From an uncultured bacterium (GTDB taxonomy: Bacteria; Bacillota_I; Bacilli_A; RFN20; CAG-826), in NCBI GenBank assembly GCA_949295325.1, contig CASFKG010000001.1, positions 579,928-643,927 on the forward strand: DNA of 64,000 bases, given 5' to 3'. This document shows, one piece after another, positions 55,537 to 63,713 of this stretch. Position 1 is the stretch's first letter, and every line of letters begins with the position of its first letter. Under the pieces are notes generated by a model. It worked only from the letters and a program-made list of their open reading frames with translations. It did not search any database and was not told the origin of the DNA. A program made the translations under genes and the position numbers.

Positions 55537-55613
<77 letters not shown>

Positions 55614-55630: not shown

Positions 55631-55681
55631 GTGTATGATTTGGCTTTTTCCATAGACACTTTGTTAGTAGGAAGGGCCCTT

Positions 55682-55700
55682 ACCGCTATAATATAGCGGT
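55682..55700 (+). promoter_or_regulatory. 19-bp perfect palindrome containing the uvrA -10 box
   Basis: ACCGCTATA-A-TATAGCGGT is a perfect inverted repeat with a single central base. TATAAT (55687-55692) lies within it and ends 10 nt before the uvrA ATG. It does not match the Gram-positive LexA box. It is a strong candidate for an operator that blocks the -10 region. Confidence 0.7.
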
Positions 55701-55702
55701 CC

Positions 55703-58543
55703 ATGGAAGATTACCGCAATTTCATCGTCGTGGAGGGAGCCCGCGAGAACAACCTGAAAAACGTTTCCCTGTCGATACCCAAGAATACCCTGACCGTCTT
55801 CAGCGGCCTTTCCGGTTCGGGTAAATCAACCCTGGCCTTCGATACCATCTATGCCGAAGGCCAGAGGCGCTACGTCGAATCGCTGTCCCCCTATGCCAGG
55901 CAGTTCCTCGGCGGGGTCGACAAGCCGGACGTCGATTCGATAGAAGGGCTGTCCCCGGCGATATCGATTGACCAGAAGACGACCAGCCACAATCCGAGGT
56001 CGACGGTCGGCACGGTTACCGAGATCTACGATTACCTGAGGCTATTGTTCGCCAGGGTAGGGGTTCCATATTGCCCCAACCACAACATACCGATCCTCTC
56101 CTATAGCCCCGTCGCGATGGGGGACGACGTCATGAATCTGCCGACCGGGACGAAGATCCAGATATTGGCCCCGGTGGTCCGCCACGAAAAAGGCACCCAG
56201 GCTGACGTCCTTTCGAAACTCAGCTCCAAGGGCTTTTCGCGCGTCCGGGTAGACGGGGAATTCCATTTGCTCGGGGAAGTGCCGGAACTCGAGAAGAACA
56301 AGCGCCACGACGTCGAACTCGTGGTCGACAGGCTTTCCCTGAAGGAAGAGTCGCTAAGCCGGCTCAACGAATCAATCGAAACCGCGCTGGATTACGGCAA
56401 CGGCTACATGATCGTCTACCACGACGGCGCCGAAAAACTCTACAGCAGCCACCATACCTGCCCCGAATGCGGATTTTCGGTCCCGAGCCTCGAACCGCGT
56501 CTTTTTTCCTTCAATGCCCCTTTGGGTTACTGCGAACGCTGCAAGGGCCTAGGCATAACCCGCGAGGTCGCGGAGGACCTTCTGGTTCCCGATCCGGACT
56601 TGACCATAAACGAGGGGGCCATCCGTTACTACAAGGGGATAGTGGGGACCGGGGCCATAGAGTGGCAGGAGTTCTGCCACATGATGGACCATTACCGCAT
56701 TCCCTACGACGTGCCTTGGAAGGACCTGAGCAAGCAGGAAAAGAAACTGATCATGCTCGGCAGCGATACCGACTTCGACTATGTCATCAAGACCAATTCC
56801 GGCAACCTCATGCACAAGCGCGGCCGTTTCGAAGGCGTGAAGAACCGCCTCGAACGCCTTTACCGCGATACCGGTTCCGAATGGATGAGGCAATATTACG
56901 AGTCGTTCATGCGGGATTCCGAGTGCACCGCCTGCCACGGGGCGAGGCTCAACCCGGCTGCCCTTTCGGTCAGGGTCAATGGACTCAATATCTACGAGGC
57001 GACCTGCCTGCCCATCGGCGAGCTACTGAAGTACATCGATTCAACGCGTAAATCGCTGGCCCCGATGCAGCTCGAAATCGCCTCGATGGTCCTTAAGGAA
57101 ATCGAAAACCGGGCCGCCTTCCTTAGCGACGTGGGACTCGATTACCTGACCCTTTCGCGCATGGCGATGACCCTTTCGGGGGGCGAAGCCCAGCGCATCA
57201 GGCTGGCGACGCAGATAGGTTCACGCCTTAGCGGCGTCCTCTATGTCCTCGACGAACCTTCCATCGGCCTGCACCAACGGGACAACCAGAAGCTCATCGC
57301 CACGATGAAGGAGATGCGCGACCTCGGCAATACGCTCATCGTGGTCGAACACGACGAAGAGACGATCCGCAGCGCCGACTACATCGTCGACATCGGCCCG
57401 GGCGCGGGGGACAAGGGCGGGAAAATAGTGGCTGCCGGGAGCGTCGAGGACATCGTCGCCGCGAAGGATTCCATAACCGGCAAATACCTTTCGGGCGAGT
57501 GGAAAATCGAAGTGCCGAAAACCCGGAGGAAGGGGAACGGGCACAAACTGACCATCAAGGGATGCCGCTGCCACAATCTCAAGAACATCGAAGTCTCTTT
57601 CCCCTTGGGGACCTTTATCGCCGTCACCGGCGTTTCCGGTTCCGGCAAATCGAGTCTCGTCAACGAGACCCTGTATAAGGCGTTGGAAAAGAAACTCGGA
57701 AAGGATTCCGACGCGGTTCCGGGCCCGTTTTCCTCCATCACGGGGCTGAACTACGTGGATAAAGCCATAAACGTCTCCCAAGAGCCGATCGGCAGGACGC
57801 CGCGCAGCAATCCGGCCACCTACATCAAACTATTCGACGACATAAGGGATCTTTACGCGGAAACACCCGTTGCGAGGGAAAAGGGCTACGACAAGGGCCG
57901 TTTCTCTTTCAACGTTCCGGGCGGCCGCTGCGAAAAGTGCCAAGGCGGCGGCGTGGTCCGGGTCCCGATGAACTTCCTGCCCGACATCTACGTGAAGTGC
58001 GACGAATGCGACGGCCTCAGGTACAATGCCGAAACGCTGGAATGCACATATAAGGGGAAGAACATCCACGACGTTTTGGAAATGAGGGTCGAGGAGGCCA
58101 TGGAATTCTTCGCGGCCCGCCCGAACATCTTCCGCCGTCTGAAGACGCTTTACGATGTAGGCCTAGGCTATATCAAGCTAGGGCAGAGCGCGACCACCCT
58201 CTCGGGCGGCGAGGCCCAGAGGGTGAAACTGGCCTACGAACTGCAAAGGAGGCCGACCGGGAAGACGGTCTATATCCTCGACGAGCCGACGACGGGTTTG
58301 CATACCGACGACGTCAAGCGCCTGATCAAGGTGCTGGATTCCTTGGTCGACCACGGCGACACCGTGATCGTCATCGAACACAACCTCGACGTCATAAAGG
58401 TCGCCGACTATGTCATCGACATCGGCCCCGAAGGCGGCGACAAGGGCGGGAACGTCGTCGCCAAAGGCACCCCGGAGGAGGTCGCCGCAACGCCGGGCTC
58501 CTACACCGGAATCTACCTTCGTCCGCTTTTGGGGGTGAAATAA
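55703..58543 (+). CDS. uvrA: excinuclease ABC subunit A
   Basis: The 946-residue UvrA recognises DNA damage for nucleotide excision repair. Two ABC ATPase modules are present: Walker A GLSGSGKST (35-43) and GVSGSGKSS (643-651), with both LSGGE signatures, and zinc modules of the CPEC/CERC and CEKC/CDEC kind. Length is normal. No ribosome-binding site precedes the ATG; a -10 box sits 10 nt upstream within a palindrome. It lies upstream of lgt, as in related Bacillota, but no uvrB or hprK lies between or next to them here. Confidence 0.97.
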   Translation: MEDYRNFIVVEGARENNLKNVSLSIPKNTLTVFSGLSGSGKSTLAFDTIYAEGQRRYVESLSPYARQFLGGVDKPDVDSIEGLSPAISIDQKTTSHNPRSTVGTVTEIYDYLRLLFARVGVPYCPNHNIPILSYSPVAMGDDVMNLPTGTKIQILAPVVRHEKGTQADVLSKLSSKGFSRVRVDGEFHLLGEVPELEKNKRHDVELVVDRLSLKEESLSRLNESIETALDYGNGYMIVYHDGAEKLYSSHHTCPECGFSVPSLEPRLFSFNAPLGYCERCKGLGITREVAEDLLVPDPDLTINEGAIRYYKGIVGTGAIEWQEFCHMMDHYRIPYDVPWKDLSKQEKKLIMLGSDTDFDYVIKTNSGNLMHKRGRFEGVKNRLERLYRDTGSEWMRQYYESFMRDSECTACHGARLNPAALSVRVNGLNIYEATCLPIGELLKYIDSTRKSLAPMQLEIASMVLKEIENRAAFLSDVGLDYLTLSRMAMTLSGGEAQRIRLATQIGSRLSGVLYVLDEPSIGLHQRDNQKLIATMKEMRDLGNTLIVVEHDEETIRSADYIVDIGPGAGDKGGKIVAAGSVEDIVAAKDSITGKYLSGEWKIEVPKTRRKGNGHKLTIKGCRCHNLKNIEVSFPLGTFIAVTGVSGSGKSSLVNETLYKALEKKLGKDSDAVPGPFSSITGLNYVDKAINVSQEPIGRTPRSNPATYIKLFDDIRDLYAETPVAREKGYDKGRFSFNVPGGRCEKCQGGGVVRVPMNFLPDIYVKCDECDGLRYNAETLECTYKGKNIHDVLEMRVEEAMEFFAARPNIFRRLKTLYDVGLGYIKLGQSATTLSGGEAQRVKLAYELQRRPTGKTVYILDEPTTGLHTDDVKRLIKVLDSLVDHGDTVIVIEHNLDVIKVADYVIDIGPEGGDKGGNVVAKGTPEEVAATPGSYTGIYLRPLLGVK

Positions 58544-58563: not shown

Positions 58564-58570
58564 TTTGTCC

Positions 58571-60088
58571 ATGGCAATAGCATTTCTGGTAATCGGGCTC
58601 ATATTGGCCCTCGGGGGACTCGGAGGAACCATCTATACCTCGCGGAGCGCCATCCGCAACGGGGAAGCGGCGGTCAGCCGCAGGGAACTCCTCTTCATCA
58701 TGGGGTCAATCGGCGTTGCCTCGGTCGGAACCGGGTTCCTGAGCGCCGCCACGAATACGTGGGGCTCCTGGAACATGGGCAGCGGGGACGCGGCGATGGC
58801 CGTTAGCGGCATTGCTCTTTGCGTCTTCTTCCTTTTGGTCCTTTGGGTCTCGTTCGCCTTCTATTACTACAAGTCGGGTTTCGACGCGAAGCAGAAGAAA
58901 ATGGCCCGCATCGCGATGTTCGCGGCCATTCCCTTCGTGTTCGCCTTCTTCCTGCTATTCGGGGAAGGCGTTGCCCCTTATCTCGATTACCCGTTGGTCA
59001 ACGGAATCGTCTTCGGAGGCGACGCCGGATTCTATTTCTCCACTCCCGAAACCGGAAATACCGGCGGCGTCCACATCATGTGGTATGCCGTATTCATCCT
59101 TTCCGGCGTGGCCGTCTGCTATTTCATCAGTGACCACGAGTTCTACAAGCGTTACGGCCGCCACGGTATCCTGGAAGTACTCGTAGTCGTGGCCTTCCTC
59201 TGCGGCATTATCGGCGCAAGGGTCTGGTATGTCGTGGGCAATTGGACTTTGAAAGGCTTCGACAAGGACTTTTCCAAGGTTTTCGCCATCTGGGACGGCG
59301 GACTCACCATCATCGGCGGTGCCGTCTTCGGCATCGTCGGGGGCGTCTGCTTCATCGCCTTCAACAAGAAATACCGTTTCGTGGAAATACCCTGGGGAAT
59401 GGGGATCATCGTCCCGACCATCCTTTTGGCCCAAGGCATCGGTCGCTGGGGGAACTTCTTCAACTGCGAAGTCCACGGCGTCGCCGTGGCCCTGAGCGAC
59501 GGGTGGCAGTGGCTGCCGACATGGCTATGGCGGAACATGCAGTATTCGTCGATGGGGCCTAGCCTGGCCGGGACCGACCAGATCTACGTCCCCCTCTTCC
59601 TCATCGAATCGATGATCAACATAGCCGGGTATTTCATCATCCGCTACGGCATCTGCTATCCGCTCCGCAAGTGGATCGCCGACGGCGATGCTGCGGGTCT
59701 CTATTTCATCTATTACGGGGTCACCCGCATCATCATGGAACCCCTTCGTTACCAAGCCTACAACATGGGCGAAGACGGAAACTTCTCCATCTGGGGCTCC
59801 CTGGCCTTCATCATCATCGGGGTTCTCCTAATCGCCTTCTTCGAACTCTGGCGGCTTTTTGCCAAGCACTTCAAGGAAAGGAAGCCCGCCGTGCCTAGCG
59901 GCGACGTCATCGAAGCCCACTTCGCCGAAGCGGAAAGCGCGATCGAAGGCGGGGAGAAGAAAGCCATCGAAGAAACTTCCGAAGAACCCGAGTCCATCGG
60001 GGATAAGGCCGGAGAGTCCGGCAAGCAGGAAGCGGAGAAGGAACCCGTCGAGCTGAAGGTTACCAAGGACGGGAAAATAGAAAACTAG
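58571..60088 (+). CDS. lgt: prolipoprotein diacylglyceryl transferase with N-terminal extension
   Basis: The 505-residue membrane enzyme adds diacylglycerol to the lipobox Cys of prolipoproteins; at least eight such substrates are encoded here. The Lgt signature RWGNFFNCEVHG starts at R292, about 150 residues later than in E. coli, and the GGLTIIGGAVFG segment precedes it. The extra N-terminal part holds about four spans, and an acidic Glu/Lys-rich tail of about 70 residues ends the protein. Usual Lgt has about 270-300 residues. The ATG at 58571 is preferred to an in-frame TTG 6 nt upstream. Confidence 0.92.
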   Translation: MAIAFLVIGLILALGGLGGTIYTSRSAIRNGEAAVSRRELLFIMGSIGVASVGTGFLSAATNTWGSWNMGSGDAAMAVSGIALCVFFLLVLWVSFAFYYYKSGFDAKQKKMARIAMFAAIPFVFAFFLLFGEGVAPYLDYPLVNGIVFGGDAGFYFSTPETGNTGGVHIMWYAVFILSGVAVCYFISDHEFYKRYGRHGILEVLVVVAFLCGIIGARVWYVVGNWTLKGFDKDFSKVFAIWDGGLTIIGGAVFGIVGGVCFIAFNKKYRFVEIPWGMGIIVPTILLAQGIGRWGNFFNCEVHGVAVALSDGWQWLPTWLWRNMQYSSMGPSLAGTDQIYVPLFLIESMINIAGYFIIRYGICYPLRKWIADGDAAGLYFIYYGVTRIIMEPLRYQAYNMGEDGNFSIWGSLAFIIIGVLLIAFFELWRLFAKHFKERKPAVPSGDVIEAHFAEAESAIEGGEKKAIEETSEEPESIGDKAGESGKQEAEKEPVELKVTKDGKIEN

Positions 60089-60089
60089 C

Positions 60090-60731
60090 ATGTATTCCTG
60101 CGTCCTTTTCGATTTGGACGGCACCTTGCTCGACAGCGATTTCATGATCGCCCTGACGATGCACGAGCTCTACAAACTCTACCGCCCAGGTTTCAAGCCA
60201 CATCTCAGGGACATGCTCTATTTTTCCGGCCCCCCGCTCATCGATACCATGAGGGAGGAATTCCCCGGGCAGGATCCGGAATTCATGAGGAGGCAGTTCG
60301 TCGAACGCTCGCCGAAATACTACGAGGACACGGTCTGCCTATATAGGGGCGCCAAGGAATTTCTCCTTTCCCTCAAGGACAAGGGGACAAAGCTGGCCCT
60401 GGTCACCAACAAAGCCAAAGGCGCTACGTTTCTCTCGCTACGGCTGACGGGGCTCGAAAACGTCTTCGACGCCGTCGTTTCCGGCGACGACGTAAGCCGG
60501 CCCAAGCCCGATCCGGAACCTTTGAGGAAAGCACTCTCTTTGCTTGGGGCCAAGCCGGAAGATAGCCTATACATAGGCGATTCGGAGTACGACGAACTCG
60601 CAGCTGGCCGGATCGGCATCGACATGGCCCTGGCCGAATTCGCCCCGCGGAAGCTATTAGCGGGCTACACCCCGAAGTACCGCTTCGACGACTATGGGGA
60701 ACTACTGGGGGAACTATATGGAAATCCTTGA
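60090..60731 (+). CDS. HAD-family phosphatase (PpaX/Gph-like)
   Basis: The 213-residue hydrolase has DLDGT (D8, D10), a helical cap, TNKAK (motif II), a KPDP motif III and GDSEYD (motif IV). It belongs to the phosphoglycolate phosphatase / pyrophosphatase PpaX branch. In Bacillus the order hprK-lgt-ppaX is conserved, so the position next to lgt supports a PpaX-like role; hprK is missing here. It starts 1 nt after lgt and overlaps trxB by 14 nt. Confidence 0.85.
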   Translation: MYSCVLFDLDGTLLDSDFMIALTMHELYKLYRPGFKPHLRDMLYFSGPPLIDTMREEFPGQDPEFMRRQFVERSPKYYEDTVCLYRGAKEFLLSLKDKGTKLALVTNKAKGATFLSLRLTGLENVFDAVVSGDDVSRPKPDPEPLRKALSLLGAKPEDSLYIGDSEYDELAAGRIGIDMALAEFAPRKLLAGYTPKYRFDDYGELLGELYGNP

Positions 60732-61644
60732 TTACGTCGTTATCGGAGCCGGTCCGGCCGGCTTATCCGCGGCCATCTATTTCTGCCGCTCCTCCCTCAA
60801 GGGAATAGTCCTCGAAGCCTCGACGCCGGGCGGCAGGCTCATAGACATAAAGCAGATAGACAATTATCCCGGGGTCCCCCACGGCTCCGGGGTCGACTTG
60901 GCTTTGGCGATGCTAAACGAGGCGATGGGCCTAGGGGCCGAGATCGTCTACAAGAAAGCCATTTCGGTGGACATGGAAGGGGAGTTCTTCAAGGTGAGTC
61001 TCGAAGATTCCTACCTGCTATGCCGCTACGTTGTTCTGGCTACCGGCACGAGTGCCCAGGGAAAGGGCATCGAAAACGAAAAGGAATACCTGGGCCGGGG
61101 AATAAGCCACTGTGCGACCTGCGACGGGGCTTTCTACCGCGGCAAGTCCGCCATCGTCGTCGGAAACGGCGAGAAGGCCGTGAGCGAAGCCCTTTATCTT
61201 TCCGGTTTGGCGGAACATCTCGATTTCCTTTGCCCCGACCGGGATCTCAAGGGCGATTCCTCATCCGTGGCCGCTTTGCGGGGAAAAGACAACGTCTATT
61301 TCCATTTCAGCGCAAAACCCCTCCGTTTCGTCCCCAATTCCGGTAAAGACGGGATAGACAGAATCGAATTCGAAGAAGGAGGGGAAGAAAAAAGCCTCCG
61401 TGCCGACGGTTATTTCCCCTATGGGGGGCAGACCGGGCCCCTGGCCCTTCTCTCTTCCCTCAATCCCAGGACCAAAGGAAATTTCCTCGAGGTCGACCCT
61501 TATACGTGCGAGACCAGCATCAAGGGCATCTACGCCTGCGGCGACTGCCGCTATTCGCTCCTAAAGCAGGTAGTGACTTCCGCCTCCGACGGGGCCGAGG
61601 CCGCGAGCGCCGTCATCAGGGAGGCCATGAGGGCAAAACGCTAG
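60718..61644 (+). CDS. trxB: thioredoxin-disulfide reductase
   Basis: The 308-residue flavoprotein has an FAD-binding GAGPAG (10-15), a second nucleotide-binding fold near residue 145 and the redox-active CATC (C132, C135). It passes electrons to thioredoxin. The ATG at 60718 is preferred to the in-frame one at 60694 because the FAD motif then begins at the normal distance. The second fold reads VGNGEKA where NADPH-type enzymes have GGGDSA, so the electron donor could be unusual, for example ferredoxin or a flavin cofactor; this is tentative. Confidence 0.87.
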   Translation: MEILDYVVIGAGPAGLSAAIYFCRSSLKGIVLEASTPGGRLIDIKQIDNYPGVPHGSGVDLALAMLNEAMGLGAEIVYKKAISVDMEGEFFKVSLEDSYLLCRYVVLATGTSAQGKGIENEKEYLGRGISHCATCDGAFYRGKSAIVVGNGEKAVSEALYLSGLAEHLDFLCPDRDLKGDSSSVAALRGKDNVYFHFSAKPLRFVPNSGKDGIDRIEFEEGGEEKSLRADGYFPYGGQTGPLALLSSLNPRTKGNFLEVDPYTCETSIKGIYACGDCRYSLLKQVVTSASDGAEAASAVIREAMRAKR

Positions 61645-61666: not shown

Positions 61667-62530
61667 GTGGAAGAAAACAGCAAAATCCAGATAGCGATAC
61701 TGAGCGGCCTTGCCGGGGCCGGCAAGACGACGGCCTCCTTTGCCTTCGAAGCCAGCGGCTACTACATAGTGGAAGACCTGCCCCTCAAGATGGTGCCCGG
61801 GGCCCTTTCGCTATTCAAAAGCGAAAAGGACAACTACCGGCGGGTTGCCTTGATATTGCCCCTGAGGGAAGTGGAGGAAGTGGCCCGCCTGATCAGACGC
61901 GACGATTCCTTCAGCCTAACCACCATCGGACTGGACTGCCGCGAGACGACTTTGCTCAGCCGTTTCAAGCTCACCAGGCACATCCATCCGCTCATGACCC
62001 GCGGATATAGCCTGGAGGAGGCCCTGAAGGCCGACCGGGCGGCGATGGAAACCGCCAGGAACGCCTTCGATGTCTACATCGACACCTCCGACCTTTCCGA
62101 GAAACAATTGAGGACGGCCATTTACGGAGTGATAAACCACGACGGGCTGAAGAACCTGAACGTCGTTTTCCAGTCCTTCGGGTACAAATACGGCATACCG
62201 CTGGACGCGGACATCGTCGTGGACGCCAGGGTTCTGGACAATCCCTACTGGGTAAAGGAACTCGCGCCATTGACGGGACTCGACGATGGTGTCGTCGACT
62301 TCATCGAAAAAGACGCGAAGACCCCCCTTTTCCTCGATTCGCTCTACGAATACCTAGACTCCTTCCTAAGACTCTGCGAAAAGGACGGAAGGACCTACGT
62401 CAACGTCGCCGTCGGTTGTTCGGGCGGACAGCACCGCTCCGTCTACGTGGCCAAGAAGCTTTTCGAACGTTACCGCGGTTCCTATAGGGCTTCGCTATTC
62501 CACCGGGAAATGCCCCGTTATAGAAAATGA
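61667..62530 (+). CDS. rapZ: RNase adapter / nucleotide-binding protein RapZ (YvcJ)
   Basis: The 287-residue protein has a Walker A (GLAGAGKTT, about 14-22), the EDLP motif near residue 36, and the C-terminal signature VGCSGGQHRSV. RapZ-type proteins bind nucleotides or aminosugar phosphate and, in E. coli, guide RNase E; YvcJ of Bacillus is a nucleotidase-like protein of less clear role. GTG is the probable start. It overlaps whiA by 4 nt. The gene yvcK, normally between rapZ and whiA, is absent. Confidence 0.92.
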   Translation: MEENSKIQIAILSGLAGAGKTTASFAFEASGYYIVEDLPLKMVPGALSLFKSEKDNYRRVALILPLREVEEVARLIRRDDSFSLTTIGLDCRETTLLSRFKLTRHIHPLMTRGYSLEEALKADRAAMETARNAFDVYIDTSDLSEKQLRTAIYGVINHDGLKNLNVVFQSFGYKYGIPLDADIVVDARVLDNPYWVKELAPLTGLDDGVVDFIEKDAKTPLFLDSLYEYLDSFLRLCEKDGRTYVNVAVGCSGGQHRSVYVAKKLFERYRGSYRASLFHREMPRYRK

Positions 62531-63483
62531 GGGAAGGGCCTTCCTTTTCGTATTTGGTGAAGGAAGAGCTTTCGGCCCTTCCTAGATCCAATGCCGCCAT
62601 GCGGGCCCTGCTTTCCGCCTTCCTCAAGGGAAGCGGGAACATCCGTTATAGCAAGGGCGAAAGACTGCTCGACATTTCCAGCGAATCCAGCAAGTCGGCG
62701 ACTTTGATGTACAAGTGCATCAAATCCCTTTATCCGGGGGCGGACCCCTATTTCTCCTATACCCGGGAATCGGGTTTTGCCCACCGGGTCCGCTACCACG
62801 TCAATCTCTCGGTAGGGCTAAAGGAGGCGCTGCTCGACCTCATGGTTTCCCCGCTCGACCAAAGCATTCCGCCCTATGCCTTTTCGAGCAAGGAAGAGTC
62901 GGTGGCCTACGCTACCGGGGCGTTCCTCTCCGGCGGCTCCGTCACATCCCCCAGTAGCAGCCATTACCATCTGGAAATATCCCTCGAGGATGCCGAGTAC
63001 GCGCGTAACCTCCTGAGGCTCCTCAACAGGTACCTCCTCCGGCCGTTTTCCTTCAAGATCGCCTCGAGGCGCAGGGAGTACGTCTGCTACATAAAGAAAT
63101 CCCAGGACATTGCCGATTTCTTGGCATGCATGGGCGCTTCCTCGATGACGCTTGAGTTCGAAAACGTCCGGATGGAACGCGACATGCACAACGTTTCCAA
63201 CCGTTGGAACAACCTCGACAAAGCCAACATGGGCAAGACAATAAAGGCAAGCGAAAGGCAGAAGGAAGAAATACTTTATTTCCAGAATAGGGGCGGAATC
63301 GGCCGACTCGGTTCCCCCAAGCTTTCCGCCCTAGCGAAGCTCCGCCTCGAACACGAGGACGCCTCTTTGTCGGAATTGGCCGAACTATTGAGCCAGGAGC
63401 TGGCGAGCGAAATCACGCGCAGCAACGTGAACCATTTGTTCAGGAAACTCGACGAGGAGTACAGGAAATGCCGCAGGGGCTAA
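62527..63483 (+). CDS. whiA: WhiA-family DNA-binding regulator
   Basis: The 318-residue protein has the two LAGLIDADG-like halves (including GAFLSGGSVTSP near residue 131) and a C-terminal helix-turn-helix (SLSELAELLSQELASEITRSNVNHLFRKL, in parts). WhiA acts in division and sporulation control in Gram-positive bacteria; in wall-poor lineages its role is unclear. It is coupled to rapZ by 4 nt and to the XRE gene by 16 nt. Confidence 0.92.
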   Translation: MREGPSFSYLVKEELSALPRSNAAMRALLSAFLKGSGNIRYSKGERLLDISSESSKSATLMYKCIKSLYPGADPYFSYTRESGFAHRVRYHVNLSVGLKEALLDLMVSPLDQSIPPYAFSSKEESVAYATGAFLSGGSVTSPSSSHYHLEISLEDAEYARNLLRLLNRYLLRPFSFKIASRRREYVCYIKKSQDIADFLACMGASSMTLEFENVRMERDMHNVSNRWNNLDKANMGKTIKASERQKEEILYFQNRGGIGRLGSPKLSALAKLRLEHEDASLSELAELLSQELASEITRSNVNHLFRKLDEEYRKCRRG

Positions 63484-63713
63484 GCATATACGTCCAGCTA
63501 GGGCGGCGCGTCTGCTATCTGAGGGGAAAGGCCGGACTTACCCAACTCGATCTCTCCCTCGAAGCCGGCTTAGCCAAGAGCTATGTGTCCGAAATAGAAG
63601 CCGGCAAGAGGAACCCGAGCCTTTCCTCCCTTTCGAAAATGGCAAAAGGCCTCGGGGTCTCCCTCGAGGAACTGCTCCGGGGAATCGACGATATAGGCCT
63701 TCCTTCTTTATAA
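63468..63713 (+). CDS. XRE-family helix-turn-helix regulator
   Basis: The 81-residue protein is a single Cro/C1-type HTH domain (LRGKAGLTQLDLSLEAGLAK, then SYVSEIEAGKRNPSLSSL). It lacks any effector domain. It overlaps whiA by 16 nt, so the two are likely co-translated. The slot often holds crh in Bacillus; an XRE gene there is unusual. A short 8-bp hairpin covers its stop codon, without a T-tract. Confidence 0.85.
   Translation: MPQGLSIYVQLGRRVCYLRGKAGLTQLDLSLEAGLAKSYVSEIEAGKRNPSLSSLSKMAKGLGVSLEELLRGIDDIGLPSL

What the first reader, a model, noticed from the sequence alone, without database searches (positions are those of the whole stretch)
55682..55700. 19-bp perfect palindrome on the uvrA -10 box
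ACCGCTATA-A-TATAGCGGT is perfectly symmetrical and contains the -10 hexamer. It does not resemble the CGAAC-N4-GTTCG LexA box of Gram-positives. It may be the operator of a different DNA-damage or stress regulator, with uvrA controlled directly at the -10 region.
Basis: partly seen in the sequence, partly recalled or inferred. Interest (0 to 1): 0.6.

Follow-up and report, generated by a model that had tools for sequence, protein, structure and literature searches.

The report
Palindromic -10 box at leaderless uvrA
The start signal of a DNA-repair gene operon in an uncultured gut bacterium lies inside a perfect 19-letter palindrome that its two closest relatives share; it is probably part of the promoter itself rather than the docking site of a DNA-damage switch shared with other genes.

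Summary
The palindrome ACCGCTATA-A-TATAGCGGT is real (55682-55700) and not chance. The -10 hexamer TATAAT (55687-55692) lies inside it, and the predicted transcription start (~55699) is 3-4 nt before the uvrA ATG. A near-leaderless uvrA promoter recurs in all 35 genus loci readable and in 46 of 60 loci from other genera of the family. The exact palindrome occurs once in the 1.1 Mb genome. The two nearest relatives keep it as 17 and 15 bp versions; the 15 bp one has half-sites 2 bp closer, although the sequence just outside has diverged. Elsewhere in the genus the arms are lost or replaced; three other lineages carry unrelated palindromes over this -10 box. The same genome has unusually many gene-private palindromes over -10 boxes (lysS, rpsF, rplK, RNase J, DivIVA-like, ung). 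It has no LexA above cut-off. The operon's own XRE regulator keeps a similar recognition helix across the genus while the arms change. A shared DNA-damage operator is therefore not supported. Best reading: a cis-acting core-promoter feature, a symmetric, possibly bidirectional -10 flanked by GC-rich arms, heading uvrA-lgt-ppaX-trxB-rapZ-whiA-XRE. A private repressor, cruciform extrusion or template-switch origin remain open.

The parts
55682..55700 (.). 19-bp perfect palindrome ACCGCTATA-A-TATAGCGGT
   Evidence: kept as 17 and 15 bp versions in the two nearest species
55687..55692 (+). -10 hexamer TATAAT of the uvrA promoter; predicted start ~55699 (range 55698-55701), no convincing -35 box
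   Evidence: consensus match; gap of 10 nt to the ATG here, mode 9 nt in relatives. Start site inferred, not measured
55688..55695 (-). mirror-image -10-like hexamers on the minus strand: TATTAT (55693-55688) and TATATT (55695-55690), predicted minus starts ~55681 and ~55683
   Evidence: read from the sequence; geometry of bidirectional promoters from PMC12825309 and PMC10268837. Activity inferred
55703..58543 (+). uvrA, near-leaderless, first gene of the string
   Evidence: NCBIfam UvrA equivalog NF001503, 1451 bits against cut-off 1147
58565..60088 (+). lgt, prolipoprotein diacylglyceryl transferase
   Evidence: TIGR00544 over cut-off
60090..60731 (+). PpaX-like HAD phosphatase
   Evidence: best match PpaX NF009804 but below its cut-off
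60694..61644 (+). thioredoxin-reductase-like protein
   Evidence: best match TIGR01292 but below its cut-off
61667..62530 (+). rapZ
   Evidence: NF003828 over cut-off
62527..63483 (+). whiA
   Evidence: TIGR00647 over cut-off
63468..63713 (+). 81-aa XRE (HTH_3) regulator, last gene, conserved at this place in the genus
   Evidence: PF01381 over cut-off; relatives
55537..55613 (-). tRNA-Pro(GGG), divergent, with its own promoter-like site TGGAAA-16-TATAAT (55652-55625)
   Evidence: tRNA-Pro-like sequence upstream of uvrA in 24 of 35 genus loci

Best explanation
The palindrome is a cis-acting feature of the core promoter of the uvrA-lgt-ppaX-trxB-rapZ-whiA-XRE gene string. Shown by sequence: the consensus -10 box lies in its centre, uvrA is nearly leaderless, and the arms are kept in three sister species. 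Inferred: the right arm (ATAGCGG) is the GC-rich discriminator of the forward promoter, and the left arm gives the mirror-image promoter on the other strand the same discriminator, so RNA polymerase could open the site in either orientation, towards uvrA or towards tRNA-Pro. The arms are kept in this clade for promoter opening and start properties; elsewhere in the genus they have been lost or replaced. No operator of a shared DNA-damage regulon is needed.
For: Consensus TATAAT 10 nt before the ATG, and the same near-leaderless layout in all 35 genus loci readable and 46 of 60 loci of other genera; a leaderless class genome-wide. Arms identical in G000 and G036 and kept with 2-bp shorter spacing in G024, while the flanks outside have diverged, so the arms are under selection. 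Minus-strand TATTAT/TATATT in the 16-18 bp geometry of known bidirectional promoters. Single copy, no LexA over cut-off, XRE helix conserved while arms change.
Against: No transcription data. The full symmetry of the GC arms is more than a bidirectional -10 needs. Palindromic promoters in this genome are not commoner between divergent genes (47% in both groups), and symmetry also occurs in relatives without an upstream tRNA-Pro. Mutating the arms might show that only a protein reads them.
Confidence: 0.45

Rival explanations
1. Operator of a repressor dedicated to this operon: a dimeric protein, perhaps the operon's own XRE protein or WhiA, binds the palindrome and blocks RNA polymerase at the -10 box.
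For: A perfect dyad over a -10 box is the classic layout of a repressor site; an XRE protein and WhiA are encoded in the same gene string; the arms are conserved in three sister species. Of the E. coli sites found by the same scan, TGCTGTATATACTCACAGCA looks like a LexA box (my reading).
Against: Single copy. Half-sites 2 bp closer in G024. The XRE recognition-helix region is similar across the genus while the uvrA arms change completely, and G036, with nearly the same palindrome, has an XRE only 41% identical.
Confidence: 0.25
2. Mutational by-product: replication template switching at the near-palindromic -10 box makes and repairs perfect palindromes, which are tolerated and turn over without a function of their own.
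For: -10-spanning palindromes with unrelated arms are in excess in G000 (at least 18: 5 seen, 0.5 expected); orthologous promoters of sister G024 do not share them (12 pairs); perfect palindromes are enriched in intergenic DNA. Template switching can create and repair perfect stems in one event (PMC8794818).
Against: At uvrA the arms are conserved in three species although neighbouring sequence has diverged; the ychF palindrome is conserved in 16 genus genomes.
Confidence: 0.2
3. Hairpin or cruciform switch: under negative supercoiling the arms pair within each strand and hide the -10 box.
For: The single strand folds into an 8-bp, 3-nt-loop hairpin at -7.0 kcal/mol, z -4.6. Symmetry with different arms recurs at this promoter in other lineages (swap test without the window's clade, 17 clusters, p<0.001 for loops up to 10 nt). 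A hairpin tolerates the 2-bp change in G024.
Against: Very short for cruciform extrusion (general knowledge). With loops up to 5 nt the swap test is not significant (p=0.09). Little or no effect outside the genus (p=0.16 and 0.87).
Confidence: 0.1

Closest known systems
Bidirectional promoters with symmetric -10 elements (E. coli, Salmonella and other prokaryotes; PMC12825309, PMC10268837)
   Same: A shared -10 element readable on both strands; predicted starts 18 (or 16) bp apart; reciprocal -7T and -11A positions.
   Different: Here symmetry extends through GC arms to 19 bp and is perfect; no minus-strand transcript has been measured.
Leaderless genes with a Pribnow box just before the start codon (PMC3160421, including some Firmicutes)
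   Same: -10 box a few nt before the ATG, no Shine-Dalgarno in a leader.
   Different: uvrA keeps a leader of a few nt (gap mode 9), and its -10 is inside a palindrome.
Repressor operators over the -10 box, such as LexA boxes
   Same: Perfect dyad over the -10 box of a repair gene.
   Different: Sequence unlike the LexA box, single copy, no LexA over cut-off.
Inverted repeats with cruciform-forming potential in E. coli promoter regions (PMC6060812)
   Same: Perfect inverted repeats enriched in promoter regions.
   Different: Here centred on the -10 box, with gene-private arms.

Membership tests
LexA/SOS regulon operator | LexA-box sequence (CGAAC-N4-GTTCG type) | tested here: not met
   read directly from the sequence
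LexA/SOS regulon operator | LexA encoded in the genome | tested here: not met
   PF01726: two weak matches, best 20.5 bits against cut-off 23.7; assembly 95% complete
LexA/SOS regulon operator | same box before other repair genes such as recA | tested here: not met
   single copy with up to 3 mismatches; nothing before recA; uvrB, uvrC and others were not located by the scan
Bidirectional promoter | -10-like hexamers on both strands in the 16-18 bp start geometry | tested here: met
   TATAAT (+) and TATTAT/TATATT (-), read; geometry
Bidirectional promoter | divergent transcripts from the shared -10 | not testable with these tools
   needs 5'-end mapping
Leaderless gene promoter | -10 box about 6-9 nt before the start codon, no Shine-Dalgarno in a leader | tested here: met
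   gap 10 nt here (leader of 3-4 nt predicted), mode 9 nt in relatives; class visible genome-wide
Autoregulated XRE operator | operator arms change together with the recognition helix of the XRE | tested here: not met
   helix region similar across the genus while arms differ
Autoregulated XRE operator | direct binding of XRE to the palindrome | not testable with these tools
   needs EMSA or DNA affinity purification

The most novel reading that the evidence does not exclude
In this lineage of reduced-genome gut Bacilli a class of housekeeping promoters (uvrA, ychF, ung, lysS, rpsF, rplK, RNase J and others) carries its -10 box inside gene-private perfect palindromes whose arms are exchanged over evolution while the symmetry is kept: a regulator-free, cis-acting promoter switch (hairpin, cruciform or orientation choice of RNA polymerase) in place of operators.
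Probability: 0.12. Interest if true: 0.7.

Novelty: new variant of a known kind. Interest (0 to 1): 0.33.

Why it matters
It shows that a striking dyad on a uvrA promoter need not be a damage operator, and it points to a testable pattern: -10 boxes embedded in private palindromes in small genomes. If the symmetry itself is functional, it would be a way of controlling promoters without a transcription factor. The conserved near-leaderless uvrA is useful in its own right for start-codon annotation in this family.

Tried and rejected
Shared regulon: rejected, the motif is single-copy. LexA: no domain over cut-off. XRE as reader of the arms: disfavoured, similar helix across the genus while arms change. 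tRNA-Pro as reason for the symmetry: some relatives with palindromes show no tRNA-Pro upstream, and palindromic promoters are not commoner between divergent genes. Known RNA element: Rfam gives only the tRNA and one sub-threshold chance match. General covariation of uvrA -10 flanks: clear in the genus with loops up to 10 nt, but with loops up to 5 nt and without the window's clade p=0.09-0.25, and outside the genus p=0.16 (swap, loops up to 10) and 0.87 (loops up to 5). Control genes ung, lepA and prfA show little or no excess; ychF does. First attempts to parse control promoters failed on over-strict patterns and were redone.

Full report
1. The observation. Window 55682-55700 reads ACCGCTATAATATAGCGGT, two perfect 9-bp arms around an A. 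It has no second copy in the window or genome with up to 3 mismatches. Keeping the hexamer and shuffling the flanks never reproduced its score (0 of 2000). The AT core is partly self-symmetric (TAT-A-ATA), so the unusual part is the pairing of ACCGC with GCGGT.

2. Anatomy. TATAAT ends 10 nt before the uvrA ATG, so the predicted start (~55699) leaves a leader of a few nt with no room for a Shine-Dalgarno. Genome-wide, exact TATAAT peaks 6-8 nt before start codons next to a normal Shine-Dalgarno peak, so this genome has a leaderless class; a loose scan gives 141 candidates among 919 crude genes. uvrA heads a packed gene string: lgt, PpaX-like, thioredoxin-reductase-like, rapZ, whiA and a small XRE protein. 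A tRNA-Pro with its own promoter-like site lies divergently upstream; tRNA-Pro-like sequence is upstream of uvrA in 24 of 35 genus loci.

3. Relatives. The genome belongs to an uncultured Bacilli lineage; the best named relatives are metagenome-assembled Bacilli, with Candidatus Onthovivens at 64% uvrA identity. A uvrA match was found in all 37 genus genomes. In all 35 genus loci analysed, and in 46 of 60 loci from other genera, a -10 hexamer lies 6-13 nt before the start codon. The palindrome is kept in the two nearest species: G036, CCGCTATAATATAGCGG (17 bp), and G024, CCGCTATAATAGCGG (15 bp), although the sequence just outside has diverged. The G024 form differs by an AT missing from the inner repeat, which leaves the symmetry intact but brings the half-sites 2 bp closer. 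Elsewhere the arms are lost or different. Three other lineages have unrelated palindromes at the same place: CTTGTTA-AAA-TAACAAG, TCTTATTAT-TTCGT-ATAATAAGA and AGGTAT-A-ATACCT (three of 17 clusters at p of 0.034 or less, binomial 0.02). Exchanging right flanks between species lowers the symmetry score (p<0.001 with loops up to 10 nt, also without the window's clade); with loops up to 5 nt and without that clade it is not significant, and there is little or no effect outside the genus. Symmetry retained despite arm turnover is therefore suggestive, not shown.

4. Not only uvrA. ychF has a conserved TAGAGATATAATCTCTA on its -10 in 16 of 37 genus genomes, single-copy in nearly all, and a different 21-bp palindrome in G024. 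In G000 the strongest site is TCCGGCATATAATATGCCGGA before a lysS-like gene; others lie before S6-, L11-, RNase J-, DivIVA-, Ung- and enolase-like genes (these names were read from the sequences by eye, not tested). Sites scoring at least 16: 8 against 1.9 by flank swapping; at least 18: 5 against 0.5. E. coli K-12 (400 kb) has only a mild excess, G035 none, sister G024 a small one. Orthologous promoters of G000 and G024 do not share the property (12 pairs). Perfect palindromes are generally commoner in intergenic than coding DNA of G000.

5. Mechanism. A regulon operator is not supported: single copy, no LexA above cut-off, nothing before recA. The operon's XRE keeps a similar recognition-helix region across the genus while the arms change. 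I favour a cis-acting core promoter in which the symmetric -10 and GC arms act as promoter elements, possibly in both directions: the minus strand offers TATTAT and TATATT with predicted starts 18 or 16 bp away, matching the geometry of bidirectional promoters. Shown: the sequence, its conservation in three species, the conserved near-leaderless layout, uniqueness. Inferred: start site, bidirectionality, the arms' role. Rivals kept open: a private repressor, template-switch by-product, hairpin or cruciform.

6. Verdict. A real, clade-conserved but gene-private palindrome on a near-leaderless uvrA promoter: an unusual variant of known promoter symmetry. Interest is modest for the single site and higher for the genome-wide pattern if confirmed.

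Noticed in passing
L263-L291 (ychF loci), e.g. L273 and L284: ychF promoters in 16 of 37 genus genomes carry a sequence-conserved 17-bp palindrome TAGAGAT-ATA-ATCTCTA on the -10 box; sister G024 (L263) has a different 21-bp palindrome AGGGAATTA-ATA-TAATTCCCT there, and G000 has none.
   Followed up: partly
G000 C1:456517-456537 (outside the window): A 21-bp perfect palindrome TCCGGCATATAATATGCCGGA lies on the -10 box of a lysS-like gene, stronger than the one at uvrA; similar private palindromes lie before S6-, L11-, RNase J- and DivIVA-like genes.
   Followed up: partly
window 55703 and uvrA loci of the whole family: uvrA is near-leaderless (gap of 6-13 nt between -10 and start codon) in all 35 genus loci and 46 of 60 loci of other genera, while ychF, lepA and prfA switch between leaderless and led forms.
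   Followed up: yes
L205-L209, L212, L214, L217, L028 (uvrA upstream regions): Many relatives without a palindrome on the uvrA -10 have a perfect hairpin directly upstream of it, for example TAGGAC-TTT-GTCCTA or CCTTTCCC-CAAA-GGGAAAGG; seen by eye, not tested against chance.
   Followed up: no
prfA loci L351-L380: Palindromes such as TTCTCACTAGTGAGAA or CCTTCCATTATGGAAGG lie upstream of prfA in many genus genomes.
   Followed up: no
window 55654-55658: A GACAC pentamer (the motif recalled for WhiA in Streptomyces) lies upstream of the uvrA promoter, with whiA in the same operon; GTGTC also appears upstream of uvrA in several relatives, but by eye this is not clearly more than chance.
   Followed up: no
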